DNA of 29,317 nt, from positions 1-29,317 of IMG/VR virus record IMGVR_UViG_3300028925_005018; one strand, written 5' to 3'. A program made the translations under genes and the position numbers. The DNA is from a virus. The notes beneath the pieces were generated by a model. The model saw only the letters and a program-made list of their open reading frames with translations, was not told where the DNA came from and did not search any database. The number at the start of each line of letters is the position of its first letter. Within the stretch, counting starts at the first letter, position 1. Below, piece by piece: positions 1 through 26,913 of this stretch.

Positions 1-30
1 AAGAAAAATAAAAAGAAAAAATATGCCTAA
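1..30 (+). CDS. 3' end of a lysine-rich protein (partial)
   Basis: The first ten codons of the window read as lysine/asparagine-rich residues followed by Tyr-Ala and a TAA stop at 28-30. This is compatible with the basic tail of a small late protein cut by the window edge, like the lysine-rich mini-protein at 28439-28525. The stop overlaps the next start codon by a few bases, as is usual in this phage. Only ten codons are visible and poly-A tracts give lysine by chance, so this is weak. Confidence 0.3.
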   Translation, partial: KKNKKKKYA

Positions 31-154
31 ACAAAAAAAGGTAAGCTGGATGTATGGTGGCAAAAAATATAGTGGAACTTATATTAGAGAAACTAAGAAG
101 GCTATATTTGCTAGAACTACTAATGGTAAAATTAAAAAGATTATAAAAAAATGA
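23..154 (+). CDS. 43-residue basic hypothetical protein
   Basis: An ATG at 23 opens a 43-residue frame beginning MPKQKKVSWMYGGKKYSG and ending in a run of Lys/Ile. It has about 14 lysines and a central aromatic/glycine-rich stretch, so it is strongly basic. Its TGA overlaps the ATG of the next gene (ATGA at 151-154), which argues that the frame is real and translationally coupled. The sequence before the start is purine-rich (AAAAAGAAAAA) without a clean Shine-Dalgarno site. The function is unknown; small basic proteins are common among late genes of marine phages. It is too short for domain recognition. Confidence 0.6.
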   Translation: MPKQKKVSWMYGGKKYSGTYIRETKKAIFARTTNGKIKKIIKK

Positions 155-918
155 ATCCAAACTCTAAATCAATAGATGATATTATAAAGCAATCTGATGC
201 AATTGAGTTTTTATCTAAAGCTCAATTAAATAATACAAAAAAAGATAATCATTCTTTATCAGATTTTTTAAAAGACGTAGATGACGAACCTAGTAAAATG
301 GCAATAGTTAAATTATTTGATATGCTGGTAGAAGGTGGAGTAGCACCTACAGTTAAACCATTAAGAGATAGAAGTACATGGCATTCTACTTATCCTGAAT
401 TTGAAATGCCAGATTTTATTAAGAAAATATCAGAGAGAGATGAAGAAGGTGCTAATTTTGCTAAGAGATGGATGGAAAGAGAAAATAAAAAGTTTATAAA
501 TACATATTCAGAAGATTTGTTAGGTAGAAAAAATATCCATGGTAAAGAAATTCCTAGAGCTGATTATCATAATTTCGAACCAGAAAGAATACCAGGTGCA
601 GTAAAAGGTGAGCAATTATATACAACTGAATCATTAAAAAAATATCAATCAAATACAGGGTCTCCAAAAATTCATGTAGCTCCTGGTGATATCCAAGCCC
701 TTATTTCAGAATTGGCTCATTATGCACAATATAAAGATTTGACAAATGAGGAAAAAATAGCAGCTAGGAGAACTAAAAATGAAGAGAACAAAAAATATGG
801 AAGTCCTACTCTCAGTCGTAATATTTATAATGTAGAAGATACTGGAGAATGGGAAGCTCATAGAATGATTGAACCTCAAATTATTAATATGTTTGAAAAT
901 CTTCTCAGAAAAAAATAA
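151..918 (+). CDS. Late protein with shared N-terminal tag and decayed HExxH motif
   Basis: A protein of 255 residues. Its first ~25 residues (MNPNSKSIDDIIKQSDAIEF) are almost the same as the N-termini of the next two genes, although the rest differs. Around residues 186-190 it reads S-E-L-A-H-Y-A-Q. That is the context of a zinc-peptidase helix (HELAHxxQ), but the first zinc-ligand histidine is serine. A downstream acidic segment (GEWEAH) could hold a further ligand-like glutamate. I infer a metallopeptidase-fold protein that is inactive or uses other ligands; this is not proven. The start is fixed by ATGA coupling to the gene before it. Placement in a plus-strand late block next to an intact HExxH paralogue-like gene suggests a virion or assembly role. 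Confidence 0.7.
   Translation: MNPNSKSIDDIIKQSDAIEFLSKAQLNNTKKDNHSLSDFLKDVDDEPSKMAIVKLFDMLVEGGVAPTVKPLRDRSTWHSTYPEFEMPDFIKKISERDEEGANFAKRWMERENKKFINTYSEDLLGRKNIHGKEIPRADYHNFEPERIPGAVKGEQLYTTESLKKYQSNTGSPKIHVAPGDIQALISELAHYAQYKDLTNEEKIAARRTKNEENKKYGSPTLSRNIYNVEDTGEWEAHRMIEPQIINMFENLLRKK
163..198 (+). repeat. Direct repeat encoding the shared N-terminal tag (copies at 163-198 and 2265-2300; partial at 929-959)
   Basis: The 36 bases at 163-198 recur at 2265-2300 with two mismatches, both in third codon positions or silent. The 24 bases at 151-174 recur exactly at 929-952. All copies lie at the 5' ends of three consecutive genes and are translated in the same frame as (N/E)SKSI(D/N)DI. The bodies of the genes are dissimilar, so the tag was duplicated or kept under selection as a module. 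Confidence 0.85.
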
Positions 919-928
919 AAAAGAAAAA

Positions 929-2131
929 ATGAATCCAAACTCTAAATCAATAAATGATATACTGAGTGCAGTATCAGCTTTACCAAAAAACTTATTTACT
1001 TCACTATTTTCTGGTAAGAATAATCAAACAGACGAAAAACCAGGGAAAAAAATTCACTCAGGAAAATGGACTTTAGAAGAGATTAAGGAACAAAGGAATG
1101 AAATTCGTAAAAAAAGTGAAATAAATAAGTTTTTTGGTACTGGCGTTGGTTTAGAGAAAGCAGATTTGGAGAAATTCCGTTTAGTTAGTGAATTATTTCA
1201 AAAGACACAGAGTGGTGACAATAGTAAGTTGAGTTTAATTGACTTCATTAAAAATTCTCGTTCTGGAGAGGGTAGTCTTACTGGTAATAATAGAATGTTT
1301 GCTAATATACTAACTGATCCAAATATTTCCAAGGAACAACTTCCTGGTTTATTTCAAGCGTATGATGAATTTATTAAAAATCCTAGTCACAAAGACCCAT
1401 TGCCAAAGTATCGTGTATCACAACAAAATTTATCTGCCTTTGGAAAAGAGAATGTCCCTATTATTAAAGATTTTCTTAAACAAATGTACCCAGAAGAAGA
1501 CTATACATCTCTTGAAGATATGTTAGGAAGAATTAAATTAGGGGATAAACCTGGAGGTTTAACACTTGATATCGGGAGCTTAATGTCACCTGATTATTAT
1601 GGCGGAAATGGTCGTGGAGGGTGGCACAGTCAGTCTAGTTTTTTTGAAGAACCAGAATCAGAAAAGTATGGGTCTATTAATCCAGTGAAAGAAATAATTA
1701 GCTCCTTTGGGGAAAAAAGTAAATATAGTTCTTCAGTGCCTTCTTCATCTGCCTCTATAAATATTGGCTCTTGGCTAGGAACAGCCAAACAGCCGAATAT
1801 AACTGGAGAAAAAGCAGATGATATTAGGAGGACTTTAATTCACGAATTTGGTCATGTTAACCCTCAATTTGTAGCAAAGAGAGGAAATAGAGAAGAGTCT
1901 AATCCATCTTCTCATCAAACTCCTTTTGACGAGATGCTTAATAAAGCTTTAGGTAGTGTCAAGGGTATGAGCGAAGCATCTACAGCTATAAAAAAAGAAT
2001 ATATGCAAAGCCTTGAGTATCAACAAACAATGAATCATCCAATGTCCAAGTTTGTGCAGATGTTGGTGAATGAGGGCATTGACCCCTTTTCTATTTATGG
2101 TAAACACATCGTGCCTCAAACACAGAATTAA
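929..2131 (+). CDS. Putative zinc metallopeptidase with shared N-terminal tag
   Basis: A protein of 400 residues. I start it at the ATG at 929, because this recreates the same MNPNSKSI N-terminus as the gene upstream, and the 24 bases from the ATG are identical to those at 151-174. An earlier in-frame ATG at 869 would overlap the upstream gene and has no support. Residues 305-309 are H-E-F-G-H in a hydrophobic helix (TLIHEFGHVNPQF), the zinc-binding and catalytic motif of gluzincin/metzincin-type peptidases. A later acidic region (PFDEMLNKALG) could give the third ligand. The first 300 residues are polar, Ser/Lys/Gly-rich and not recognised. It could act as an injected or virion-associated protease, or in prohead processing; this is inferred from the late block alone. 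Confidence 0.75.
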   Translation: MNPNSKSINDILSAVSALPKNLFTSLFSGKNNQTDEKPGKKIHSGKWTLEEIKEQRNEIRKKSEINKFFGTGVGLEKADLEKFRLVSELFQKTQSGDNSKLSLIDFIKNSRSGEGSLTGNNRMFANILTDPNISKEQLPGLFQAYDEFIKNPSHKDPLPKYRVSQQNLSAFGKENVPIIKDFLKQMYPEEDYTSLEDMLGRIKLGDKPGGLTLDIGSLMSPDYYGGNGRGGWHSQSSFFEEPESEKYGSINPVKEIISSFGEKSKYSSSVPSSSASINIGSWLGTAKQPNITGEKADDIRRTLIHEFGHVNPQFVAKRGNREESNPSSHQTPFDEMLNKALGSVKGMSEASTAIKKEYMQSLEYQQTMNHPMSKFVQMLVNEGIDPFSIYGKHIVPQTQN

Positions 2132-2186
2132 GGGGATACAGGACATAAGATATGAATTCTCAAAAAATTAGAAAAGGAAAAAAGCA

Positions 2187-2531
2187 ATGAATGAACAATT
2201 AATGATGCTGTTATCTCAGTTAACAGGAGGTGGTTCTAAAGGAATGGTTCGTGACGTAGGAGAATCTAAATCTATAGATGATATTATAAAGCAATCCGAT
2301 ATGTTTGAATTATTATCTAAAGCTATGGCAGATAAAACTAATGTAGATTCTAGTGAAATGCCAATGAGAGATGATATAACTAAGTACTCTTCAGATGATC
2401 CACTAGATTTATTATTTAAAATGAGAAACAATGAAAGACGACCACCTGTAGAGCGTGATAAGAATAAAGAATATAGTAGCTTTATTCAAAGGTTGATGGA
2501 TTTAGCAAAGGCTAAACCAAAAGAATTATAA
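2187..2531 (+). CDS. 114-residue late protein with shared N-terminal tag
   Basis: A protein of 114 residues, led by AAGGAAAAAAGCA before ATG. After a 25-residue glycine-containing leader it carries ESKSIDDIIKQSDMFELLSKA (residues ~26-46), almost the same as residues 5-25 of the gene at 151. The DNA matches 34 of 36 bases. The remainder is polar and charged (MRNNERRPPVERDKNKEY) with no recognised domain. It is the last plus-strand gene before the convergent boundary with the leftward operon. It could be a minimal carrier of the tag or a chaperone of the tagged proteins. Function unknown. Confidence 0.7.
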   Translation: MNEQLMMLLSQLTGGGSKGMVRDVGESKSIDDIIKQSDMFELLSKAMADKTNVDSSEMPMRDDITKYSSDDPLDLLFKMRNNERRPPVERDKNKEYSSFIQRLMDLAKAKPKEL

Positions 2532-2746: not shown

Positions 2747-3127
2747 TTATTTTTTGTCTTCTTTACTAATATCATTTAATCTCCAAGTTTTTTCATATTC
2801 TTTTATAGCCCAATTCTCTGCTTTAAGTTCCCATTTATTATCTTTATAATAATCTCTATTACAATAGACAGCTACGGTTCCAGCCTGAGCATACTTCTTA
2901 ATAAACTTTCTAATGCCAAGTCTTCGGGCATCAATAGCGTGTTTACCTTCATGCAGTACAGTCATTACAAAGTCTTTAGGGTCTGGGTTTTCTTCTTTTA
3001 TGTCTCTAAGTATAATTTTATCTTCTTCTGCTAAGTACATACCCTTAACATCTAATGTCTTAGACATTACTATTGTTGGATGAATATTGTACTTACCTAG
3101 AATTGACTTAGCTATTACGTTACGCAA
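2747..3127 (-). CDS. Putative small zinc metallopeptidase (HExxH)
   Basis: A protein of 126 residues beginning with TTG at 3127. GGAG lies seven bases before it, inside the 3' end of the helicase gene, and the two overlap by eight bases. Residues 59-63 are H-E-G-K-H in VMTVLHEGKHAIDARRLG, a typical zinc-binding helix. The family looks like a minimal SprT/WLM or ImmA-like peptidase core: a short beta region, an active helix, then an acidic C-terminal helix (ENWAIKEYEKTW) that may give the third ligand. The substrate is unknown. It lies between the helicase and the bS21-like gene at the distal end of the early cluster. Activity is inferred from the motif only. Confidence 0.7.
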   Translation of the reverse strand: MRNVIAKSILGKYNIHPTIVMSKTLDVKGMYLAEEDKIILRDIKEENPDPKDFVMTVLHEGKHAIDARRLGIRKFIKKYAQAGTVAVYCNRDYYKDNKWELKAENWAIKEYEKTWRLNDISKEDKK

Positions 3128-4475
3128 TTACAATCTCCGATTCTTTAGTTAATAATTTTTTATTTCTTTCATGTTCAGTAGCTTCTAGTATATCATCAAA
3201 TAGTTTACAACTGTCTCCAGAGTAACCCATCTCTACTGATCCTGGTGTTCCATATCTATTCTTAGATACTATAAGCATCATCTCGTTTGGCATCCATATC
3301 CTACCATTGGAATCTTCTGCACCAAATCTAGACACATAAGGATAGTGAGTAAATACTACCATCTCTGCATCTTGCTCTAGTGAACCAGACTCTGCCAAGT
3401 CAGACAACCTAGGTGTAGAGTCGATTCTATGTTCTATATTTCTATTCAGCTGCGACACTAGTATGATACACATATCATGTCCCTTAGCTAACCATTTATA
3501 TCGCATAGTTGTTTCTCTAATCTTATGTCTTAGGTCTCTATTGTCATTAGATGGAAACTCTATTAAACCTATGTGGTCATCAATAACAACATCTGGTTTT
3601 ATTCTTTTTATCTCATTGAACGTCTCATGTATATCTCTAATAGAATCATACATAAATAAATTCTCTTTATAATTCTCTCTAATATAATCCATTGCCCTCT
3701 CTACCTCTGGCTTTATAGATTTAGTTCCATGTCTAATACCTCTATACGATAGAGTATCTGACTCCATAGCTATAAACTTTTTCATCATCTCTACGTTTGG
3801 CATCTCACGATTGATCATCATTACTTTCTTACCAGACAACACTAACTGTCTAGCCATATTAGCTACTACAGTAGTCTTTCCATTCGCTGGTCTACCAGCT
3901 ACAATAGTTATCTCACCTCTAGTCATACCATGTACTACAGAATCTAACTTACCTAACCCTGTCTTTATAATTCCTTTACTATTAAATATAGAATCGCTTG
4001 TCTCTTCGAGAGTATTATCTATATTGAAGTCATTCTTAGAAGGTCTTAGGTTTATAATGTTACTAGAATCTGTATTCACCTGGTTAATAAGTGAATCCAT
4101 ATCCACTGAATTATCTTCTGCGTTTTTTATTATAGTATGTGAATGCTCTACCATCTTTCTTCTTAACCAATGCTCATGCATTAGCCTAGCATAGTACTCT
4201 GCTCTAGCCGTGCTAGCCTCTTTAGTACATATAGTAGTTATATCATAAGTAACTTGTCTGTTCTGGTAGTTCTTAGAAGGGAAGTTATGAGATACAGTTA
4301 ACATATCTATTTCATCTCCCTTGTCTTCTAACCTTTTTACAGTCTTCCATATATCTCTATTAAACTCATTGTAAAAAACATCGTCAGTTTCTATCCATCT
4401 CTTTACAATATCAATATTACTTGGCTTATTTATAACTGAGAATAATACAGCCTCTTCTATTTCTACGTTGTGCAT
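3120..4475 (-). CDS. dnaB: Replicative DNA helicase, DnaB-like
   Basis: A protein of 451 residues. The N-terminal helical domain (residues 1-~110, EEAVLFSVINKP start) matches the DnaB N domain. The RecA-like motor follows: Walker A GRPANGKTT at 194-202, acidic NREMP near 222-226, Walker B VVIDD at 296-300, and the sensor/H4 region VSQLNRN at 340-346 with LSDLAESGSLEQDA afterwards. The usual C-terminal SKNRYG motif is also present. It should unwind DNA at the phage fork as a ring hexamer. The start ATG has GAGGAAAT before it. Directly upstream in the operon lies a zinc-finger protein that may load it. No primase is seen in the window, so the host primase or an unseen gene is needed. Confidence 0.93.
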   Translation of the reverse strand: MHNVEIEEAVLFSVINKPSNIDIVKRWIETDDVFYNEFNRDIWKTVKRLEDKGDEIDMLTVSHNFPSKNYQNRQVTYDITTICTKEASTARAEYYARLMHEHWLRRKMVEHSHTIIKNAEDNSVDMDSLINQVNTDSSNIINLRPSKNDFNIDNTLEETSDSIFNSKGIIKTGLGKLDSVVHGMTRGEITIVAGRPANGKTTVVANMARQLVLSGKKVMMINREMPNVEMMKKFIAMESDTLSYRGIRHGTKSIKPEVERAMDYIRENYKENLFMYDSIRDIHETFNEIKRIKPDVVIDDHIGLIEFPSNDNRDLRHKIRETTMRYKWLAKGHDMCIILVSQLNRNIEHRIDSTPRLSDLAESGSLEQDAEMVVFTHYPYVSRFGAEDSNGRIWMPNEMMLIVSKNRYGTPGSVEMGYSGDSCKLFDDILEATEHERNKKLLTKESEIVIA

Positions 4476-6313: not shown

Positions 6314-6464
6314 TCTCGTAACGCTCCTTATTATTAACTATAAAGCCTCGCTTTTCAGCTTGCCTCCATATAAATTTAATAAAATCATCTATATCTTTTT
6401 GAGGTGTGTCTTCTCCTCTTTCTATGTATATAGATTCCATCTCTTCTACCATTTTAAATTTCAT
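6243..6464 (-). CDS. Hypothetical protein, 73 residues
   Basis: A protein of 73 residues starting in an ATGA overlap with the methyltransferase stop (6461-6464), with GGAG nine bases upstream. The first 48 residues are balanced and helical (DTPQKDIDDFIKFIWRQAEKRGF). The last 25 overlap the next frame and look compositionally poorer (Arg/Asn/Gly-rich). Possibly a small accessory of the methyltransferase by position; function unknown. Confidence 0.65.
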   Translation of the reverse strand: MKFKMVEEMESIYIERGEDTPQKDIDDFIKFIWRQAEKRGFIVNNKERYENEGRELDRNRRGNVQLNGMGEGT

Positions 6465-7561
6465 AAATAAATGCTCCTTATTACTTCAGAAACTACATTA
6501 GTTGTTACTGCATTACCAAGACATTTATACCTTTGAGTATCAGATAATCCCTCAGTCCATCCGTCTGGAAACCCTTGTAATCTCTCGCATTCTACAGGAG
6601 TTAGTCTTCTTATATTAGACCCTTGCAATGTGTGTTGTTGCATACCAGTATCTAGTGTCTGAGCTACTGCCCTACCTACTCTACCTCGCCTGGTTTTAGA
6701 ACTAGGAACAGATAGATTAATACTATCTCCCTCTTGAGCTATAGCATAGCCTGTCTTGGTAGCTTCTTTAACTTTAACTTTAAGTAAATCCATATCACTA
6801 TGATTTCCTCCGCTATGACCTCCACCACATAAAGTTGATGCTTGCTTTTGATTTCTTTTTTCTTTTCCATCTTTAGATATTATTTTATATAAACCTGTTT
6901 TTGCTCCCACTCCTCCACCTACAGCTTTTATCGTAGTTGATAAACCATCTTGATCATAGACACGATATCCCATAGATTTATTCTTAGTTAACTCTTTTAG
7001 TCTACTTTTTTCACTATCTTCTTCAGAGATTTTTCCGAGAGGAAATATTTTTTCTCTACTTCCTCCTCTAAGATGTCCGACAAGATAGATTCTTTCCCTA
7101 TTTTGAGGGACTCCGAAGTTCTTACTATTAAGTAGCTCCCATTGCACCATATACCCAACGTCGGAGAGAACCCTAAGGATTGTCTGGAAAGTCCTTCCAG
7201 AGTCATGAGAAAATAAACCTCGTACATTTTCGAGTATAAAATGTCTGGGTTTTTTGTGGCTGAGAATCCGTGCGATATCAAAAAATAGAGTACCTCTCGT
7301 CTCTCTAAATCCGAGTCTTTTTCCAGCAATGCTGAAAGCTTGACAAGGAAATCCTCCAACGAGGAGGTCGAAGTCGGGAAGTTCTCTCTCATTAATGTTT
7401 GTTGCGTCTCCATAGTTATTAACACCTTTAAAATTCCTTTCATATATTTGTGTTGCGTACTTATCTATTTCCGAATAGCCTACAAATTCAGCATTCGGAA
7501 TAGTATTTTTTATTCCTAGCTCAAATCCTCCTATACCAGAGAACATTGAGAATACCTTCAT
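6461..7561 (-). CDS. dcm: DNA (cytosine-5-)-methyltransferase
   Basis: A protein of 366 residues carrying the ordered C5-methyltransferase motifs. Motif I is FSGIGGFELG (7-16, AdoMet binding). Motif IV is GGFPCQAFS (69-77), with catalytic Cys73. Motif VI is ENVRG (111-115) and motif VIII is QNRERIY (153-159). A variable target-recognition region follows (about 190-310), then RRLTPVECERLQGFPDGW and motif X GNAVTTNV. It transfers methyl from AdoMet to carbon 5 of cytosine in double-stranded DNA. No restriction endonuclease lies beside it, so it is an orphan enzyme that probably protects phage DNA from host restriction. GGAG lies seven bases before ATG. The target site cannot be read from the sequence. 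Confidence 0.95.
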   Translation of the reverse strand: MKVFSMFSGIGGFELGIKNTIPNAEFVGYSEIDKYATQIYERNFKGVNNYGDATNINERELPDFDLLVGGFPCQAFSIAGKRLGFRETRGTLFFDIARILSHKKPRHFILENVRGLFSHDSGRTFQTILRVLSDVGYMVQWELLNSKNFGVPQNRERIYLVGHLRGGSREKIFPLGKISEEDSEKSRLKELTKNKSMGYRVYDQDGLSTTIKAVGGGVGAKTGLYKIISKDGKEKRNQKQASTLCGGGHSGGNHSDMDLLKVKVKEATKTGYAIAQEGDSINLSVPSSKTRRGRVGRAVAQTLDTGMQQHTLQGSNIRRLTPVECERLQGFPDGWTEGLSDTQRYKCLGNAVTTNVVSEVIRSIYL

Positions 7562-11513: not shown

Positions 11514-12767
11514 CTATACGAGATACTCTAGTACTCTATAGTCCTCAGCTTTCTCTAAGTTATAGAACTTATTCATTCTCTTGTCTACATAGTCCTTAAC
11601 ATCTTTATCTAATCTTAAGAACTTAAAGAACTCATTGTAAGTAAGGTCTCTCTCTGTGATTGTACTAATTATTGCACTACTTTCATCAGTAGATTGATAA
11701 CATATCCTTATCCCTGTATCTACTATAGCTGTACATATCTTAATCCAATTTAGTATCTTATCTTGATTGATAGTTCCAGAGTGATATCTAAACTCTACAG
11801 AGCCATTGATTATTCTAGAATGCATATTCATACCACAATATCTAGAATCATTGTATTTCTCCATAGATGGACTTACATCCCAAGAGTTGTACCAAGCTTC
11901 TATAAAATCATCATTAGATTCTATTGCTAATATATCTGGTCTAGACATAGGTATTCTTCTACACCATCTACCATTATCTCTAGAAGGTGGTAACATCTTA
12001 TAGATAACATCTTGAACAGACTTACCTAGTAATAGAATGTGCTTAAGTTGCCTCCAATCACAATCTCTAGCATCTATATGTACGTGCAACCCACAACTTC
12101 TATTAATAGAAAAACTATTATCAAGATAGCTAGTTAGATTACTTACCTTATTATAAAGGTCATCTCCATTGCTAGGTGTCCTCATTACCCACTCTACACC
12201 ACTACCATTATTCCCTCTCTCTATACTACCATCGTGAACTGGTCTAAACTCATTTGGGTGATTAGACCCATCTTCTGTCTCCCAAAAGTCCCAGTTATTT
12301 GTAATTGTCTCTACTTCTAAACCTACTAACCTCATAGATTCGATAATATTATTAGACTTAGAATCTTCTCCCATATTTCTATTAGAGTAACTATCTAAGT
12401 CTACATCATTATCAGGGAAACAATTCTCACAATAGTAGTTATCATCATTATCGTTAAGCCTTATATCCTCTCTATTAACTTCGTCATCACATCCATCGCA
12501 CGATACGTATGTTTCGTAGTAACAATCTTCACAGTAATTACATCCGTTACTATCCAAGCGATGATACTCTGAATCAAACCACATAGTATGACCACAATCC
12601 TCGCAATGAACTATAGTCTCATAGCATTCGCTACATAGAATATCATTCGTATCTCCCTCTACTTCTATATCCGTAAAATAGTTATTATCAGCTACATCTT
12701 TACTACATACAGAACATTCTAATAACTCTACTTCTTCTACGGGTTTACTTTTGTCTTTTGTATCCAT
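11514..12767 (-). CDS. Zinc-finger amidoligase (Amidoligase_2 / glutamine-synthetase-like COOH-NH2 ligase)
   Basis: A protein of 417 residues. Residues 1-120 hold repeated CxxC knuckles (C18/21, C45/48, C55/58, C79/82, C90/93, C113/116), forming about three zinc-binding units. The catalytic domain follows: G-L-E-V-E-T (149-154), V-H-D-G-S (177-181), E192 in V-E-W-V-M-R-T-P, C-G-L-H-V-H-I-D (225-232) and S-V-E-F-R-Y-H (323-329). These match the metal, ATP and substrate residues of the Amidoligase_2 family, which joins a carboxylate to an amine using ATP. AGGAGG precedes ATG 12767. It is the third gene of an operon with a class II glutamine amidotransferase, the association reported for this family. 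The substrate is unknown: a peptide, cell-wall or protein side chain. Confidence 0.88.
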   Translation of the reverse strand: MDTKDKSKPVEEVELLECSVCSKDVADNNYFTDIEVEGDTNDILCSECYETIVHCEDCGHTMWFDSEYHRLDSNGCNYCEDCYYETYVSCDGCDDEVNREDIRLNDNDDNYYCENCFPDNDVDLDSYSNRNMGEDSKSNNIIESMRLVGLEVETITNNWDFWETEDGSNHPNEFRPVHDGSIERGNNGSGVEWVMRTPSNGDDLYNKVSNLTSYLDNSFSINRSCGLHVHIDARDCDWRQLKHILLLGKSVQDVIYKMLPPSRDNGRWCRRIPMSRPDILAIESNDDFIEAWYNSWDVSPSMEKYNDSRYCGMNMHSRIINGSVEFRYHSGTINQDKILNWIKICTAIVDTGIRICYQSTDESSAIISTITERDLTYNEFFKFLRLDKDVKDYVDKRMNKFYNLEKAEDYRVLEYLV

Positions 12768-12775
12768 ATATCCTC

Positions 12776-13096
12776 CTAAGCTATTGCGTAGTTAGCAGTT
12801 ATCATATAGAAAGCCATATAGTTTATCTCTCTAAGCCAACCTATTCTTTTAAGAGTTTTATATATACTCTCTGGCTCTATAGAATCTACTATTATACCTT
12901 CCTGTTCTTCTATCTGTCTAGCTATATAACTAAGGTAAGATTCAAATGAATCTGTATCTACAAAAGGATTATTCTTAGCTTTCTTATAGAGCTTCTTCAT
13001 TACATATAACTTTGACTTTATACGTATTGGATTATCTATACCAATTACTATAGCTGATCGCTTCTTCTTAGATGAAACAAGTTTGTCTATCATCAT
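12776..13096 (-). CDS. Conserved-context hypothetical protein between amidotransferase and amidoligase
   Basis: A protein of 106 residues beginning MMIDKLVSSKKKRSAIVIGI. Its start overlaps the amidotransferase 3' end by 29 bases and its stop lies nine bases from the amidoligase ATG, so the three are one transcription unit. It is basic at the N-terminus and mainly helical (KLYVMKKLYKKAKNN; SYLSYIARQIEEQEG), with a hydrophobic end (NYMAFYMITANYAIA). No motif is recognised. Its fixed place between the two enzymes makes it a candidate partner, carrier or substrate. Confidence 0.7.
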   Translation of the reverse strand: MMIDKLVSSKKKRSAIVIGIDNPIRIKSKLYVMKKLYKKAKNNPFVDTDSFESYLSYIARQIEEQEGIIVDSIEPESIYKTLKRIGWLREINYMAFYMITANYAIA

Positions 13097-14210
13097 TCGT
13101 ATCTCCTTTCTTTTTATTCTTAGATATAGATGTGGTAGCTAAGTCGTAGTCATAGCAAGACTTACATATATAGTACCCACTAGTCTTGATAGCGTCATCA
13201 GCCCAGTCTCCACAATAAGAACACTCTATACCATCTTCCCATTGTTTTTTATTTATGTTACTCTTTACTATGTATTCACAGTCAAAACATACATACTGTA
13301 GATTGTCTGCATCGTAGACTAAATCGTACCACTCTGTAGGCTTGCAGCAAACATCGCAGTCTCTACTCTTAGTATCTATATCAGAATTAACACCGAAGCT
13401 CTGGTCGAAACTAAACTCTCCTCTACCAAATCCGTAGTGATTATAGCTTCTCTCCATTACATAGTTAGATGCTATTGTATTAGTTTCATATGACTTCTTA
13501 TCAAAGTTCATCTTTCCATTAAACTTACTAGTATCTATAGTATATAGAGTATCATTAGATACCTCGTATATTTTCATAGATATTTTTGTACCTTTAATAG
13601 ATTCCTCTAAGATGTCTTTTTGAGAGGCATAGAGTAAGACTCTAGCTTCTTTCCAATATCCGAAATAACAAGGTCTACCAGATTCCTTTAGTAGATGTAA
13701 TATATCTTTATTACTTCTATTCCAGGCTAATGCGTAGTCTCCGTATATTTCATCTAGACATTCTTGAAGGTTATTATTGGAATTAAATAGAGCGAATATA
13801 GCTTGAGAGTCTACCTTGTAAACTTCTTTCTTATTTACAGAGATATCCTCGTGGTTATGAATTACTCCATTATGAGTTCCAATTACAGATCCGATGTGGA
13901 AAGGGTGAGCGTTTTCTAGAGATATATTTCCGTGTGTCTTATACCTTGTATGTCCTAAGACTACAGATGTCTCTGGAGTAAGCTCTGCTATGATTTTATT
14001 CCAATCTCTATGCTTGACAAGATTACTTGACTTTTTTAGAGATTTAAATATCATAGGGTTCTTACCACTACTAATAAAAGCAAGTCCTGTAGAGTGTTCA
14101 CCTCTAACTACAGATAATGCAGTTAGCTTGGTTAATACTCTCTTTAATTGCTTAGATTGGTAATCTGTCTGTGCGTGTTTCTGTTTGGCTATGCCAAATA
14201 TTCCACACAT
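13068..14210 (-). CDS. Class II glutamine amidotransferase with C-terminal zinc ribbons
   Basis: A protein of 380 residues. It begins M-C-G-I-F-G-I-A, with Cys2 as the N-terminal nucleophile. The glutaminase signatures follow: G-H-T-R-Y (86-90, Arg89), A-H-P-F-H near 101-105, T-H-N-G-V-I-H-N (112-119) and Y-G-D-Y-A-L-A-W (156-163). It hydrolyses glutamine to glutamate and ammonia. The sugar isomerase, synthetase or phosphoribosyl domains that usually follow are absent. Instead residues ~285-352 carry two four-cysteine ribbons (C285/288, C308/311; C330/333, C349/352), echoing the zinc knuckles of the amidoligase two genes downstream. It probably feeds ammonia to, or acts as transferase with, that ligase. 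Confidence 0.9.
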   Translation of the reverse strand: MCGIFGIAKQKHAQTDYQSKQLKRVLTKLTALSVVRGEHSTGLAFISSGKNPMIFKSLKKSSNLVKHRDWNKIIAELTPETSVVLGHTRYKTHGNISLENAHPFHIGSVIGTHNGVIHNHEDISVNKKEVYKVDSQAIFALFNSNNNLQECLDEIYGDYALAWNRSNKDILHLLKESGRPCYFGYWKEARVLLYASQKDILEESIKGTKISMKIYEVSNDTLYTIDTSKFNGKMNFDKKSYETNTIASNYVMERSYNHYGFGRGEFSFDQSFGVNSDIDTKSRDCDVCCKPTEWYDLVYDADNLQYVCFDCEYIVKSNINKKQWEDGIECSYCGDWADDAIKTSGYYICKSCYDYDLATTSISKNKKKGDTNDDRQTCFI

Positions 14211-20351: not shown

Positions 20352-20563
20352 TGAAAAAAGTTAATTTTAATTTAGAAATAGAAGTTCACAAGGATTTAAA
20401 AGATGAAATCTTAAAAGACTATGTCTCTAGTTATCTTATAAATCAAGAAACATTTGATGATTTTAGATTAAACATTATTGGAGGAAAAAACTATCCTGAA
20501 AATTTTGAGATAGGTTCTATCAAGTTTGATTTAAAAAAGAAAAAAGCAAAAGCTAAAAAATGA
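20351..20563 (+). CDS. Hypothetical protein, 70 residues
   Basis: A protein of 70 residues with GGAG six bases before its TAATG-coupled start. It alternates strands and helices (KVNFNLEIEVHKDLKDEILKD; DDFRLNIIGG; FEIGSIKFDL) and ends in a poly-basic tail (KKKKAKAKK). Its last codon overlaps the next ATG. Function unknown. Confidence 0.7.
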   Translation: MKKVNFNLEIEVHKDLKDEILKDYVSSYLINQETFDDFRLNIIGGKNYPENFEIGSIKFDLKKKKAKAKK

Positions 20564-20910
20564 AGTTAGCTGTATATGGAACATTGAGAAGTGGGAATGA
20601 AAATACAGGTATATTAGAAAACTCTTCATTGGTTTACCCAGGGCATCATACTTTTCCAGCAGTGATTCAGAATAATAATGGCTCTGGAACTGTAGTAGAG
20701 GTGCATACTGTAGATAAAGAAGACTTAGCTAGGTATGATATCTATGAGGGTGTTGATTCTGGTCTTTATAGGCGAGTAAAGGCGGATATTAAAATGGATA
20801 GTGGAGAAACAGAGAATGTTTGGGTGTATGTAGCTGGAGACGAATTGATGCAAAGAAGCAATTCTTTTAAAGTAATTCAAAGTGGAGATTGGTACAATAG
20901 AAAATTTTAA
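20560..20910 (+). CDS. Gamma-glutamylcyclotransferase-like protein (GGCT/AIG2 fold)
   Basis: A protein of 116 residues. It opens with M-K-L-A-V-Y-G-T-L-R-S-G, the family's substrate-binding YGTLR loop. It has L-A-R-Y-D-I-Y-E-G at ~57-65 holding the catalytic glutamate, followed by L-Y-R-R at ~70-73. These are the core signatures of GGCT/GGACT/AIG2 enzymes, which cyclise gamma-glutamyl groups to 5-oxoproline and release the amine or amino acid. It sits between small unknown genes and terL. Phage copies are known, but their substrates are not. Because an amidoligase and a glutaminase are encoded on the other strand, a link through gamma-glutamyl amides is attractive but inferred. Confidence 0.85.
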   Translation: MKLAVYGTLRSGNENTGILENSSLVYPGHHTFPAVIQNNNGSGTVVEVHTVDKEDLARYDIYEGVDSGLYRRVKADIKMDSGETENVWVYVAGDELMQRSNSFKVIQSGDWYNRKF

Positions 20911-22534: not shown

Positions 22535-24547
22535 AACTACGTAGAAACTTTTGCCGAGCATGAAGATGCTCAGGCTAACAGAGAATTATGGAGAAGATGG
22601 AGAGATGCCAGGGCTAACTGGGAAGTAGAATCTAGAGATGCCATTGATTTTGTATTAGGCAATCATTATTCTGCTGAAGAATCAGAAATGCTTCAATCAG
22701 TTGGTCAAGGTGATTTTATTATAGATAGAGTTTATGCTGCTGTAGATAAACTCAAGTCTTTGTTAACGTCTAGAAATCCTAAGTTCTCTGCTGTTGCAAG
22801 AGAGGACTCTGATTATAAGTTAGCTAATGTCTGGCGTACTATATTAGAGTACGTATGGGATATCTCTGATTGCAATACTCATTTTAAACAAGTAGTGCAT
22901 GATTATTCTGTTGCAGGGATTGGTTATTTTTATGTTTATGTAGACCCAGAATCGGATTATGGAAGAGGTGATGTTAAAGTTACAGGCATAAATCCTTTTC
23001 GTGTTTATATAGACCCAGCTTCAAGAGATAGATATAATGCAGACTCTGCTTCTATGATACTATCTACTATTTTAACTAAGGAGCAACTCCTTGGATTATA
23101 CCCACAACTTGAAGAAATAATAGATAACATAGATAGTTCCACAGATGAAGAAGATTATCCCTCCTCAAAAAAGAAAAACTCATCTTCTTCTTTTACGCCT
23201 GATGTGGTTAAAGATTATGATCGCGGTGGTTACCAGAAATACAGGATTTTGGAGAGGTTTGAAAAAATTAAAGTTCCTTATTATAGATTATTTAACAAGG
23301 AAACACAAGAAGAGAAGATAATAGATTTAGATTCATTTCAAAAGATTCTATCTGAAAACTCTCATTTGATAGAATCGGGACTGGTAGAAGCAGTTGAAGT
23401 TCTACAGACGCGCGTGCGACAAGTTGCTACTGTAGGGCAAATTCTATTATACGAGCAAGTGCTCAACACTGATGTGTATCCCATTGTGCCAGTCCCAAAC
23501 ATTTGGACTAATACTCCATACCCTAAATCAGATGTAAGTAAAGTAAAAGACTCTCAAAGATTAATTAATAAATTATTTTCTCTTACATTAAGTCATGCAC
23601 AAGCCTCAGCTGGTCTAAAACTATTAGTTCCAGAAGGTAGTGTAGATGATGTAGGGCAGTTAGAAAGAGATTGGGCTAATCCAAATGCGGTTATTGAATA
23701 TAATCCTGAGTTTGGTGAGCCACACTTTCCAGCACCTCAACCATTAGCATCAGAGTTCTATGGTTTAATTTCTAGAGTAGAGCACTACATAGATTTAAAT
23801 TTTGGCATTTCAGAATTAATGCAAGGATTTAGGTCTGGGACTCCAGATACAGCTAGAGGAACTTATATGCTCCAGGAGATGGGAGAAACAAGAGGGCGTT
23901 CTAAGCTCAAAGATATAGAGGGAAGCCTTGATGTTCTTGGAAAAGTAGTATATAACTTTTGTAAGGGACATTACGGATTTAAAAAGACTTTTAGAATCGT
24001 GCAACCAAACAATGACATAACTGAATTTACCGTTAACAATAGAATGTATGACGATAAATCTAAAGAGTTAATGTCTATTGAGAATGATATTTCTCTTGGA
24101 CAGCACGATATTAGAATAATATCAGGTTCAACGCTACCATCTAATAAGATGGCTGAGTACAATATGTATTTAGATGCTTATAAGTTGGGCTTGGTAGACG
24201 ACGTCGAGGTTCTAAAGAAAACAGAAATCTATGACAAAGAAGGTGTCTTGCAACGGAAAGGTGCTATGAGTCAGATGAAAGGTTACATTGAACAGCTTGA
24301 AGAGCAGGTTAAGAAACTAAGTGGTGATTTGCAAACGTCAGAACGTGAAGCAGTAAATGCTAAAAAACAAACCATTACTCAGAAATTCAAGACTGGATTA
24401 GATTCAGTTCTTGGTGATATAAAAGATAAAGAAAGAAAAAATCTGAACAAGCTAGAGAATGTAATTGATAAAGCTGATTTGCAGGCTAAGTATGGTCAAA
24501 AGCAAAGACAAGGCGTACAGGGTGCCGAAGAAGGCGTTGAAGGTTAA
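22532..24547 (+). CDS. Portal protein, probable AUU start
   Basis: A protein of 671 residues when read from ATT 22532. Starting at ATG 22688 would drop about 52 residues that look fully coding (ELWRRWRDARANWEVESRDA, then FVLGNHYS). The body has the layout of large phage portals: wing and clip regions with V-I-D-P-A-S-R-D-like stretches (here V-Y-I-D-P-A-S-R), a tunnel-helix region with M-Q-G-F-R-S-G-T-P-D-T-A-R-G-T, and a C-terminal coiled coil (IEQLEEQVKKLSGDLQ) ending Gly/Glu-rich. It forms the dodecameric ring through which terminase packages DNA. It follows terL and has its own promoter. Confidence 0.88.
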   Translation: MNYVETFAEHEDAQANRELWRRWRDARANWEVESRDAIDFVLGNHYSAEESEMLQSVGQGDFIIDRVYAAVDKLKSLLTSRNPKFSAVAREDSDYKLANVWRTILEYVWDISDCNTHFKQVVHDYSVAGIGYFYVYVDPESDYGRGDVKVTGINPFRVYIDPASRDRYNADSASMILSTILTKEQLLGLYPQLEEIIDNIDSSTDEEDYPSSKKKNSSSSFTPDVVKDYDRGGYQKYRILERFEKIKVPYYRLFNKETQEEKIIDLDSFQKILSENSHLIESGLVEAVEVLQTRVRQVATVGQILLYEQVLNTDVYPIVPVPNIWTNTPYPKSDVSKVKDSQRLINKLFSLTLSHAQASAGLKLLVPEGSVDDVGQLERDWANPNAVIEYNPEFGEPHFPAPQPLASEFYGLISRVEHYIDLNFGISELMQGFRSGTPDTARGTYMLQEMGETRGRSKLKDIEGSLDVLGKVVYNFCKGHYGFKKTFRIVQPNNDITEFTVNNRMYDDKSKELMSIENDISLGQHDIRIISGSTLPSNKMAEYNMYLDAYKLGLVDDVEVLKKTEIYDKEGVLQRKGAMSQMKGYIEQLEEQVKKLSGDLQTSEREAVNAKKQTITQKFKTGLDSVLGDIKDKERKNLNKLENVIDKADLQAKYGQKQRQGVQGAEEGVEG

Positions 24548-25530: not shown

Positions 25531-26913
25531 ATGGCTATTACACAGGGAACTAAACTCTCTAGTAATATTACGGCTGCAGCAACTAGTGCTGGCGTAGGTC
25601 AAGCTCCTGATAGAAGACGGTTATACGATTTTAGTGATCGAGTTGCTGAATTGGCTCCCGAAGAATCACCATTCTTCGTATACTTGTCTCAGGTTGCAAA
25701 AAACCCTACAGATGATTCTGTCTTTCGTTTCTTAGAAAATCGTTCTAAGATTGATTGGACTAGTCGTAATTTTAAAATTGATTTAGCTGGACACGTTAAC
25801 GGTGGCAGTACAGTAGCAGCTGGAAGCTCTTATGCTTTTACAGTTGATGCTAGTAGTGTTTCAGTTGACTGGCTAATAAAAGGAATGGTTTTTGCAGTAA
25901 ATACAACTACTGGCGCGGAAACAGCTGGCTATGCTCAAACTCTAGTAAGAGTTGAGACGGCAGTTACTGATAACGGAAGCGACAGTTCATTTACTGGAAA
26001 AATTATTGACGTTTCAAATGCAAACGTAACTGGATATAATATTATATCTGACGATGATGATTGTCAGGTTATTGGCACAGCATTTGCTGAAGGCTCTGCC
26101 TCTCCAGATGTTTGGTCAGGTGAGATTGAGGATGACTATGGTTATACTCAAATCTTTAAAACTGCTTGTGAACTTTCTAACACAGCAATTGCAACTCGCT
26201 ATCGCGGATATGCAAACGAGTTTGAACGCATTTGGGCGACTAAACTTCGTGAGCATAAAGTTGATATTGAACGTGCAATGTTGTTTGGACAAAAAGCAAG
26301 AGTTGGTGGTATCCAGTATAGTGAAGGGCTTGTTGGGCATATTGTAAAGAATGCTAATCCAACTGCTAATGATGCAGCTCTTGCATATACAAGTGGAGCA
26401 CCTTACTATCGTAGCGTTGCTCAAAGTGAAATGACTTATGACCGCCTATTAGGCGACTTAGAAGTTATCTTTGATCCAGCTCGCGGTGGTTCATCAGACA
26501 GGCTAGTGCTTGCTTCTCTTCCAGTTATAACATTCTTTAACAAATTAGGTGATGGTGCTTTCATGGATGCTTCCATGGGTTCTGCTGCTAACATGGTTAA
26601 TCGTTATAACTTTCAAGAAAGAGAAGGTGCTTTTGGTCATAAAATTATGACTATTGATACCGTTCACGGTACAATGCACTTAGTAAAAGAACCATTATTT
26701 AGAGGTCAAGCTTCTGGATTCATGCTTATGGCTGATATGAGCAAATGTCAATATCGCCCATTAGTTGGAAACGGTTTAAATCGTGATACTCATATTATTA
26801 CTAACGTACAGAACTCTGACGAGGACTTGCGTAAGGATATGATTGTTACGGAAGCTGGTCTTGAAATTACACTTCCAGAGAGCCATGCTCTTTTTGAAGT
26901 GGAAGCAGCGTAA
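25531..26913 (+). CDS. Major capsid protein (HK97 fold, SU10/DUF5309-like)
   Basis: A protein of 460 residues with an excellent GGAGG site nine bases before ATG. The N-terminus (R-R-L-Y-D-F-S-D-R-V-A-E-L-A-P-E-E-S-P-F) and the spine-helix region (ELSNTAIATRYRGYANEFER, then K-x-x-E-H-K-V-D-I-E-R-A-M-L-F-G) are typical of SU10-type/DUF5309 capsid proteins. Later blocks (V-L-A-S-L-P-V-I-T-F-F-N; I-M-T-I-D-T-V-H-G-T) are consistent. Position after scaffold and codon use unlike its neighbours (more GCT/GGT, a highly expressed pattern) support it. An inserted Ser/Thr/Gly-rich stretch at ~85-170 may be an extra surface domain. Confidence 0.88.
   Translation: MAITQGTKLSSNITAAATSAGVGQAPDRRRLYDFSDRVAELAPEESPFFVYLSQVAKNPTDDSVFRFLENRSKIDWTSRNFKIDLAGHVNGGSTVAAGSSYAFTVDASSVSVDWLIKGMVFAVNTTTGAETAGYAQTLVRVETAVTDNGSDSSFTGKIIDVSNANVTGYNIISDDDDCQVIGTAFAEGSASPDVWSGEIEDDYGYTQIFKTACELSNTAIATRYRGYANEFERIWATKLREHKVDIERAMLFGQKARVGGIQYSEGLVGHIVKNANPTANDAALAYTSGAPYYRSVAQSEMTYDRLLGDLEVIFDPARGGSSDRLVLASLPVITFFNKLGDGAFMDASMGSAANMVNRYNFQEREGAFGHKIMTIDTVHGTMHLVKEPLFRGQASGFMLMADMSKCQYRPLVGNGLNRDTHIITNVQNSDEDLRKDMIVTEAGLEITLPESHALFEVEAA

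What the first reader, a model, noticed from the sequence alone, without database searches (positions are those of the whole stretch)
151..2531. Shared N-terminal tag on three adjacent, otherwise different proteins
The peptide (N/E)SKSI(D/N)DI(I/L)KQSD-x-x-E-x-LSKA opens or lies near the start of genes at 151, 929 (shorter version) and 2187. DNA identity is 34/36 between two copies and 24/24 between two others, while the bodies differ. This looks like a modular sorting signal, for example for packing proteins into the head or for injection, similar in idea to capsid-targeting sequences of T4 internal proteins. That role is inference.
Basis: partly seen in the sequence, partly recalled or inferred. 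Interest (0 to 1): 0.75.

Follow-up and report, generated by a model that had tools for sequence, protein, structure and literature searches.

The report
Portable tag on phage cargo proteins
An uncultured short-tailed phage carries the same ~30-residue tag on several otherwise unrelated proteins, some resembling enzymes that other phages inject, and relatives swap tag and body freely, so the tag is probably an address label that gets cargo into the virus particle for delivery into the bacterium.

Summary
The repeat is real: three consecutive genes at the end of a late operon share the peptide (N/E)SKSI(D/N)DI(I/L)... in frame, with unrelated bodies. It is not a recent local duplication. I found the same module in 27 contigs of an uncultivated podovirus-like lineage (33 copies). 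It always lies in a "cargo locus" between a large protein related to T7 gp16 (internal virion protein) and the convergent DnaB gene. The core sits in the first 30 residues of 24/53 cargo proteins but of 0/149 replication and 0/141 upstream late proteins. It is not strictly N-terminal: in the last gene of the locus it is usually internal (residue ~25-150) and is that protein's only strongly conserved part. Modules and bodies swap both ways. One body (64% identical) carries two unrelated N-terminal modules; one module carries unrelated bodies. Bodies include an ADP-ribosyltransferase-like fold and HExxH proteins, both typical of injected phage effectors. One alternative module also occurs inside an internal-protein gene adjacent to the gp16-like gene. 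DNA exchange junctions fall exactly at the tag. Best reading: a non-cleaved docking/sorting tag for virion cargo, working like the T4 and P1 capsid-targeting sequences. Packaging and injection remain untested.

The parts
23..154 (+). Small basic protein gene (43 aa); left edge of the variable cassette
   Evidence: 95-98% identical copies lie at the corresponding place in L025, L072, L005 and L026; DNA homology with L025 ends at 159, just after the start codon of the next gene
151..918 (+). Cargo gene 1 (255 aa), body with no relative found; C-terminal SELAHY...EWEAH resembles a degenerate zincin (by eye only)
160..246 (+). Tag copy 1 (NSKSIDDIIKQSDAIEFLSKAQLNNTKKD), residues 4-32
   Evidence: Profile hit iE 1.5e-18; 78% identical over 27 aa to the tag of L028_12695
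929..2131 (+). Cargo gene 2 (400 aa), putative zincin metallopeptidase
   Evidence: HEFGH motif; body related to L036_12949 (E = 2e-4), which also has HExxH
929..964 (+). Tag copy 2, short form MNPNSKSINDIL; same short form (MNPNSKSIDDII) opens the HExxH cargo gene L037_12321
   Evidence: 36/37 nt identical to copy 1; 38-41/45 nt identity among the three starts
1841..1855 (+). HEFGH (HExxH) motif of cargo gene 2
   Evidence: HExxH in 4/53 cargo proteins and 0/290 controls
2187..2531 (+). Terminal protein T (114 aa), last gene of the cargo locus in nearly all relatives
2259..2348 (+). Tag copy 3 (GESKSIDDIIKQSDMFELLSKAMADKTNVD), residues 25-54 of T
   Evidence: Tag columns 64% mean pairwise identity against 30% for other columns in 19 T proteins
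2266..2268 (+). Right exchange junction: homology with L025 (90%) resumes here, at the first codons of the tag
   Evidence: same position in the L028/L042 pair
3120..4475 (-). DnaB-like helicase gene, convergent right-hand landmark of the cargo locus
   Evidence: phrog_19 E = 1e-69; present in the same place in relatives

Best explanation
The tag is a short, non-cleaved, amphipathic docking motif that recruits otherwise unrelated proteins to the internal (ejection) core of a podovirus particle during assembly, so that they enter the next host with the DNA. Shown: conserved peptide, multiple bodies, two-way module/body exchange, fixed locus behind the T7-gp16-like gene, effector-type bodies. 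Inferred: the tag binds a component of the internal core or scaffold; proteins with one copy are cargo; the terminal protein T, which carries the motif internally and in some genomes several motif-like repeats, is either cargo or a hub. Not shown: presence in virions, injection, binding partner. Because the coding sequence of the tag is short and conserved, homologous recombination at it also lets the phages exchange cargo genes.
For: 33 module-a tags in 27 contigs. Strict core in the first 30 residues of 24/53 cargo proteins against 0/149 and 0/141 controls. Locus always between the large internal protein and DnaB; that protein matches phrog_342 'internal virion protein with endolysin domain' (E = 1.3e-7 in L036, 3.3e-7 in L064). 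Two-way swaps: L028_11194 and L027_11200 bodies 64% identical (E = 8e-69) with unrelated N-modules; L042_12487/L004_3 bodies E = 4e-27; ART body on three different modules; L033_10467/L039_9136 modules 78% identical, with only a 22-residue match (E = 0.014) next to the module in the bodies. Alternative module c also lies inside L081 gpX, a homologue (E = 1e-9) of the gene next to the gp16-like gene. ART fold: AlphaFold model of L024_10067 matches Tpt1 (E = 3.5e-4, prob 1.00) and DarT (prob 0.99). HExxH only in cargo. Tag cores amphipathic: helix-1 moment 0.64 against 0.36 +/- 0.03 shuffled. N-termini of the gp14-/gp15-like neighbours score higher against the tag profile than replication proteins (p = 1e-4, 6e-4). 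Cassette boundaries: window and L025 ~90% identical outside, unrelated inside.
Against: No proteomics or localisation data; no cultured member of the lineage in the phage collection. Tag internal in T, unlike known targeting sequences. About half of cargo proteins carry other modules or none in the first 30 residues. The gp16-like gene is not in the window itself but is inferred from relatives. The structure model of gene 2 failed (pLDDT 37), so its zincin assignment rests on the HExxH motif and weak homology. Enrichment p-values are optimistic: the motif was defined on these cargo sequences, and the sequences are related.
Confidence: 0.64

Rival explanations
1. The tag is a shared docking motif for a phage or host factor inside the infected cell (assembly chaperone, lysis or takeover complex); the tagged proteins are not packaged.
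For: Late operon position fits any late function; the terminal protein carries the motif internally, as a docking motif would; no virion data.
Against: ART and HExxH bodies are typical of early-acting injected effectors, and polyvalent proteins occur next to virion genes (PMC5512222); motif absent from replication and other late genes; module c found inside an internal-protein gene.
Confidence: 0.18
2. The tag is mainly a DNA-level recombination boundary ('linker') that lets cassettes shuffle, with no role as a peptide.
For: Homology breakpoints fall exactly at the tag in two pairs: window/L025 at 2266 and L028/L042 at the K(S/T)IDDI codon, ~90-97% identity after, none just before.
Against: Conservation is of the peptide: L016 and L029 tags are 30/30 aa identical but 84/90 nt, all differences synonymous; same-codon rate 64% against 51% expected from codon usage; always the same reading frame; equivalent unrelated modules replace it on the same body.
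Confidence: 0.1
3. Recent local duplication of a gene start, without function.
For: Copies 1 and 2 are 36/37 nt identical including the start codon.
Against: Conserved across 27 contigs on many bodies; the same MNPNSKSIDDII start lies in L037; tag 1 is as close to other genomes as to tag 3.
Confidence: 0.03
4. A degradation or translation-control element at the gene start.
For: Copies 1 and 2 include the start codon region.
Against: Internal position in T with strict amino-acid conservation.
Confidence: 0.03

Closest known systems
Capsid-targeting sequence (CTS) of phage T4 internal proteins IPI, IPII, IPIII
   Same: One short shared N-terminal sequence on otherwise diverse small proteins that the phage swaps; the review PMC3012670 calls T-even internal proteins diverse, with only a conserved CTS. 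T4 starts MKTYQEFIAE / MKTFKEF align in register with the K-[ST]-I-x-[DE]-[IF]-[IY] core (shuffle p 0.003-0.048).
   Different: T4 CTS is strictly N-terminal and removed by the prohead protease; here the tag can be internal and no protease was recognised. Different phage type. The short alignment does not show common descent.
N-terminal packaging signal of phage P1 DarB
   Same: The N-terminal 30 residues suffice to bring a reporter into the capsid for later delivery (PMC9024508).
   Different: No consensus among the P1 Dar proteins was found by BLAST; here there is a clear shared consensus.
Polyvalent proteins (Iyer et al. 2017, PMC5512222)
   Same: ART and zincin domains, encoded near virion genes, predicted to be injected.
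   Different: Polyvalent proteins have 2-15 domains in one chain; here each cargo is a short module plus a single body, in separate genes.
T7-type ejection proteins gp14/gp15/gp16
   Same: The neighbouring large protein matches the T7 gp16 family (phrog_342); locus order resembles a T7-type internal-protein block.
   Different: The tagged cargo proteins are not homologues of gp14, gp15 or gp16.
crAssphage cargo proteins (PMC10172136)
   Same: A podovirus-like particle stores viral proteins in capsid and tail for ejection.
   Different: In the passages read here, no shared short tag is described for crAssphage cargo.

Membership tests
T4-type capsid-targeting sequence | Short sequence shared by otherwise unrelated proteins of one phage group | tested here: met
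T4-type capsid-targeting sequence | N-terminal position | tested here: not met
   N-terminal on most upstream cargo, but internal (residue 25-150) in the terminal protein of most genomes
T4-type capsid-targeting sequence | Removed by a prohead protease | tested here: inconclusive
   No protease gene recognised between portal (22688-24547) and MCP (25531-26913); only a 291-aa ORF without family hits lies there. The genome is incomplete.
T4-type capsid-targeting sequence | Sufficient to bring a foreign protein into the head | not testable with these tools
   Needs fusion experiments
T4-type capsid-targeting sequence | Sequence homology to the T4 CTS | tested here: inconclusive
   Same pattern in register, shuffle p 0.003-0.048, three non-independent sequences
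Polyvalent proteins | Several disparate enzymatic domains in one polypeptide | tested here: not met
   Pfam, PHROGs and NCBIfam scans find at most one body per protein
Polyvalent proteins | ART / zincin type domains next to virion genes | tested here: met
   ART fold by model and Foldseek; HExxH in four cargo bodies; locus behind the gp16-like gene
Injected virion proteins | Present in purified virions and transferred to the host | not testable with these tools
   No proteomics; no cultured member found
T7 gp16-like internal virion protein (neighbour gene EJ) | Homology to the T7 gp16 family | tested here: met
   phrog_342 E = 1.3e-7 (L036) and 3.3e-7 (L064); not tested for the window genome, whose EJ gene lies off the contig
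ADP-ribosyltransferase superfamily (body in relatives) | ART/Tpt1 fold | tested here: met
   Foldseek: Tpt1 7yw4 E = 3.5e-4 prob 1.00, DarT 7omx prob 0.99; phrog_5470 E = 4e-4
Zincin metallopeptidase (window gene 929) | HExxH within a zincin fold | tested here: inconclusive
   HEFGH present, relatives share HExxH; fold prediction failed

The most novel reading that the evidence does not exclude
The lineage uses one degenerate amphipathic signal as a general address for its whole internal ejection core: structural internal proteins (gp14-/gp15-like N-termini, an internal-protein gene with module c) and interchangeable effector cargo dock to the same site. The coding sequence of the tag doubles as the crossover point for swapping effectors: a polymorphic, injected effector system built on an uncleaved tag.
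Probability: 0.33. Interest if true: 0.78.

Novelty: new variant of a known kind. Interest (0 to 1): 0.62.

Why it matters
Few phage protein-packaging signals are defined (T4 CTS; P1 DarB, for which no consensus among the Dar proteins is known). A shared, position-flexible, apparently uncleaved tag in a gp16-type podovirus lineage would give a sequence handle for finding injected effectors in uncultured phages. It makes the question of how cargo is chosen for the internal core directly testable by fusing the tag to a reporter. It also shows how effector genes are exchanged: same flanks, new cargo, junctions at the tag.

Tried and rejected
Searching with the whole proteins of genes 1 and 2 found no relatives; only gene 3 did. 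Pfam, PHROGs and NCBIfam gave nothing usable for the three window proteins; the weak DUF1390, TAC and EcoRV hits were treated as chance. Searches for the gp16-like protein, T and two cargo proteins in the phage collection, and for the gp16-like protein in the PDB and the GTDB genome contigs, found nothing, so no host and no cultured member. The structure model of gene 2 was unusable (pLDDT 37). Recent intragenomic duplication was considered and rejected. A pure DNA linker was considered and ranked as rival. The claim that the large protein itself starts with the tag was tested and not supported (p = 0.05), nor for gpX in general (p = 0.16); only the gp14-/gp15-like N-termini score above background, and these are groups of homologues, so the p-values overstate independence. 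A literature search for earlier descriptions of such a shared tag in podoviruses found none in the library held, which is not proof of absence.

Full report
Observation. The window is a 29,317-base IMG/VR virus record with terminase, portal and major capsid genes in a rightward late module, a leftward replication module, and at its left end the tail of a late operon. Three consecutive genes there (151-918, 929-2131, 2187-2531) carry the same peptide in frame. DNA repeats are 36/37 nt between copies 1 and 2 and 77% over 84 nt between copies 1 and 3. The match of gene 1 to gene 3 has E = 1.4e-6 in the six-frame search. The rest of the three proteins is unrelated.

Relatives. Whole-protein searches found relatives only for gene 3. 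A tag alignment found 18 loci, a second tag alignment 21, and an alignment of the large upstream protein 53 loci. After removing duplicate contigs, module 'a' (the KSIDDII type) is found at iE <= 2e-4 in 33 proteins on 27 contigs including the window. None of the proteins tested (the large protein, T, two cargo proteins) has a match in 50,697 cultured or deposited phage records, and the large protein has none in the GTDB genome contigs.

The cargo locus. In the relatives the tagged genes always lie between a large (about 1,150-1,520 aa) protein, called EJ here, and the convergent DnaB gene. EJ of two cargo-bearing genomes matches PHROG 342, 'internal virion protein with endolysin domain', the T7 gp16 family (E = 1.3e-7 and 3.3e-7). 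The window contig begins just downstream of where EJ would be: its first gene (23-154) is 95-98% identical to the small gene in the cargo locus behind EJ in L025, L072, L005 and L026.

Enrichment. The core [KNR][ST][ILV]x[DEQ][ILFM][ILMFYKV] occurs in the first 30 residues of 24 of 53 non-redundant, non-basic cargo proteins, and in 0 of 149 replication-module and 0 of 141 upstream late proteins of the same genomes (Fisher p about 1e-16). The motif was defined on the cargo set and the proteins are related, so the exact p-value is optimistic; the contrast is not subtle. In the terminal protein T the tag is usually internal. The 28 tag columns have 64% mean pairwise identity against 30% for other well-occupied columns, and no other 28-column window exceeds 21% (occupancy-weighted). 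Tag cores are amphipathic (helix-1 moment 0.64 against 0.36 +/- 0.03 shuffled). In L033_11668 two motif copies stand in tandem, and several T proteins have further motif-like repeats.

Modularity. Several N-terminal modules exist: a (KSIDDII...SDxxEFLSKA), b (KTIQDIY...LDMLYAGKSSGEGSS), c (KTLLDILTGG...DLPT...GKNIFG) and, in distant members, VHSNIDDLI. They exchange with bodies in both directions. Bodies of L028_11194 (module a) and L027_11200 (module c) are 64% identical over 147 aa (E = 8e-69) with no similarity between their modules. L042_12487 (a) and L004_3 (c, N-terminus cut by the contig end) share a body at E = 4e-27. An ADP-ribosyltransferase-like body occurs with modules b, c and the VHSNID form. 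Conversely L033_10467 and L039_9136 share module b at 78%, and their bodies show only a 22-residue match (E = 0.014) next to the module. Interchangeability on the same body implies that the modules are functionally equivalent (inference). Module c also lies inside L081 gpX (23 aa at 74%), a homologue (E = 1e-9) of the internal-protein gene next to EJ in other genomes. This links a cargo module to the presumed virion core in one genome.

Bodies. The model of L024_10067 is confident in its catalytic part. Its best PDB matches are tRNA 2'-phosphotransferase (7yw4, E = 3.5e-4, probability 1.00) and DarT (7omx, 0.99), in line with PHROG 5470 (E = 4e-4). HExxH motifs occur in four cargo proteins (window 929, L036_12949, L037_12321, L063_11215) and in no control protein. 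Gene 929 is weakly but significantly related to L036_12949 (E = 2e-4); its fold prediction failed. ARTs and zincins are hallmark domains of proteins that phages are thought to inject (PMC5512222).

Evolution. Compared with L025, the window is about 90% identical up to position 159 (just after the start codon of gene 151) and again from 2266 (the first codons of the tag in T). Between these it is unrelated except for 2162-2204, the start of T. The L028/L042 pair shows the same kind of junction, at the K(S/T)IDDI codon of T. So cargo is exchanged as cassettes and the tag's coding sequence is where homology resumes. The conservation is nevertheless of the peptide: the L016 and L029 tags are identical over 30 aa but differ at 6 synonymous sites. 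The repeat is not a recent local duplication: tag 1 matches tag 3 in 64/90 nt and the T tag of L028 in 70/90.

Mechanism. I favour a non-cleaved docking motif that brings proteins to the internal core during assembly so that they are delivered with the DNA (confidence 0.64). Shown: sequence, distribution, modularity, neighbourhood and body types. Inferred: packaging, partner, injection. The tag's internal position in T argues against a cleaved leader. The N-termini of the gp14-like and gp15-like neighbours score above replication proteins on the tag profile (p = 1e-4 and 6e-4), which hints at a common docking rule, but these are sets of homologues and the effect is modest; EJ and gpX do not show it.

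Comparison. The nearest functional parallels are the T4 capsid-targeting sequence (review PMC3012670) and the P1 DarB N-terminal packaging signal (30 residues sufficient; no consensus among Dar proteins; PMC9024508). T4 MKTYQEFIAE aligns in register with the core (shuffle p 0.003-0.048), a resemblance and not proof of homology. It works like a CTS but does not meet the N-terminal criterion everywhere, and cleavage is unsupported, so I call it a new variant of a known kind.

Noticed in passing
window 981-1010 / 1110-1139: A 30-nt inverted repeat (93% complementary, 99 nt apart) inside gene 929 shortly after the tag; the RNA fold of 976-1144 has z = -5.24. Possible scar of the cassette exchange or a regulatory hairpin.
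   Followed up: partly
window 2747-3127 (-): Small HExxH protein (HEGKH) between the cargo locus and DnaB, conserved in several relatives; weak hits to zincin families.
   Followed up: no
window 11514-12767 (-), 13068-14210 (-), 20560-20910 (+): By eye: amidoligase-like, class II glutamine amidotransferase and gamma-glutamylcyclotransferase-like genes, a set that suggests peptide tagging or cell-wall modification. Not tested.
   Followed up: no
cargo loci of L040, L046, L027, L023 and others: Many small Lys/Arg-rich proteins (clusters C1-C3, C5, C7, C8, C12) share the cargo locus but lack the tag; possible DNA-condensing virion proteins.
   Followed up: no
L046 11930-12184, L027 12852-13106: A short protein with a signal peptide and an apparent heavy-metal-associated (HMA) domain inside a phage late locus (by eye).
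   Followed up: no
window 6461-7561 (-) and L003 4301-4831: C5 DNA methyltransferase gene (by eye) whose middle part differs between the window and the otherwise near-identical contig L003, as if the target-recognition region had been swapped.
   Followed up: no
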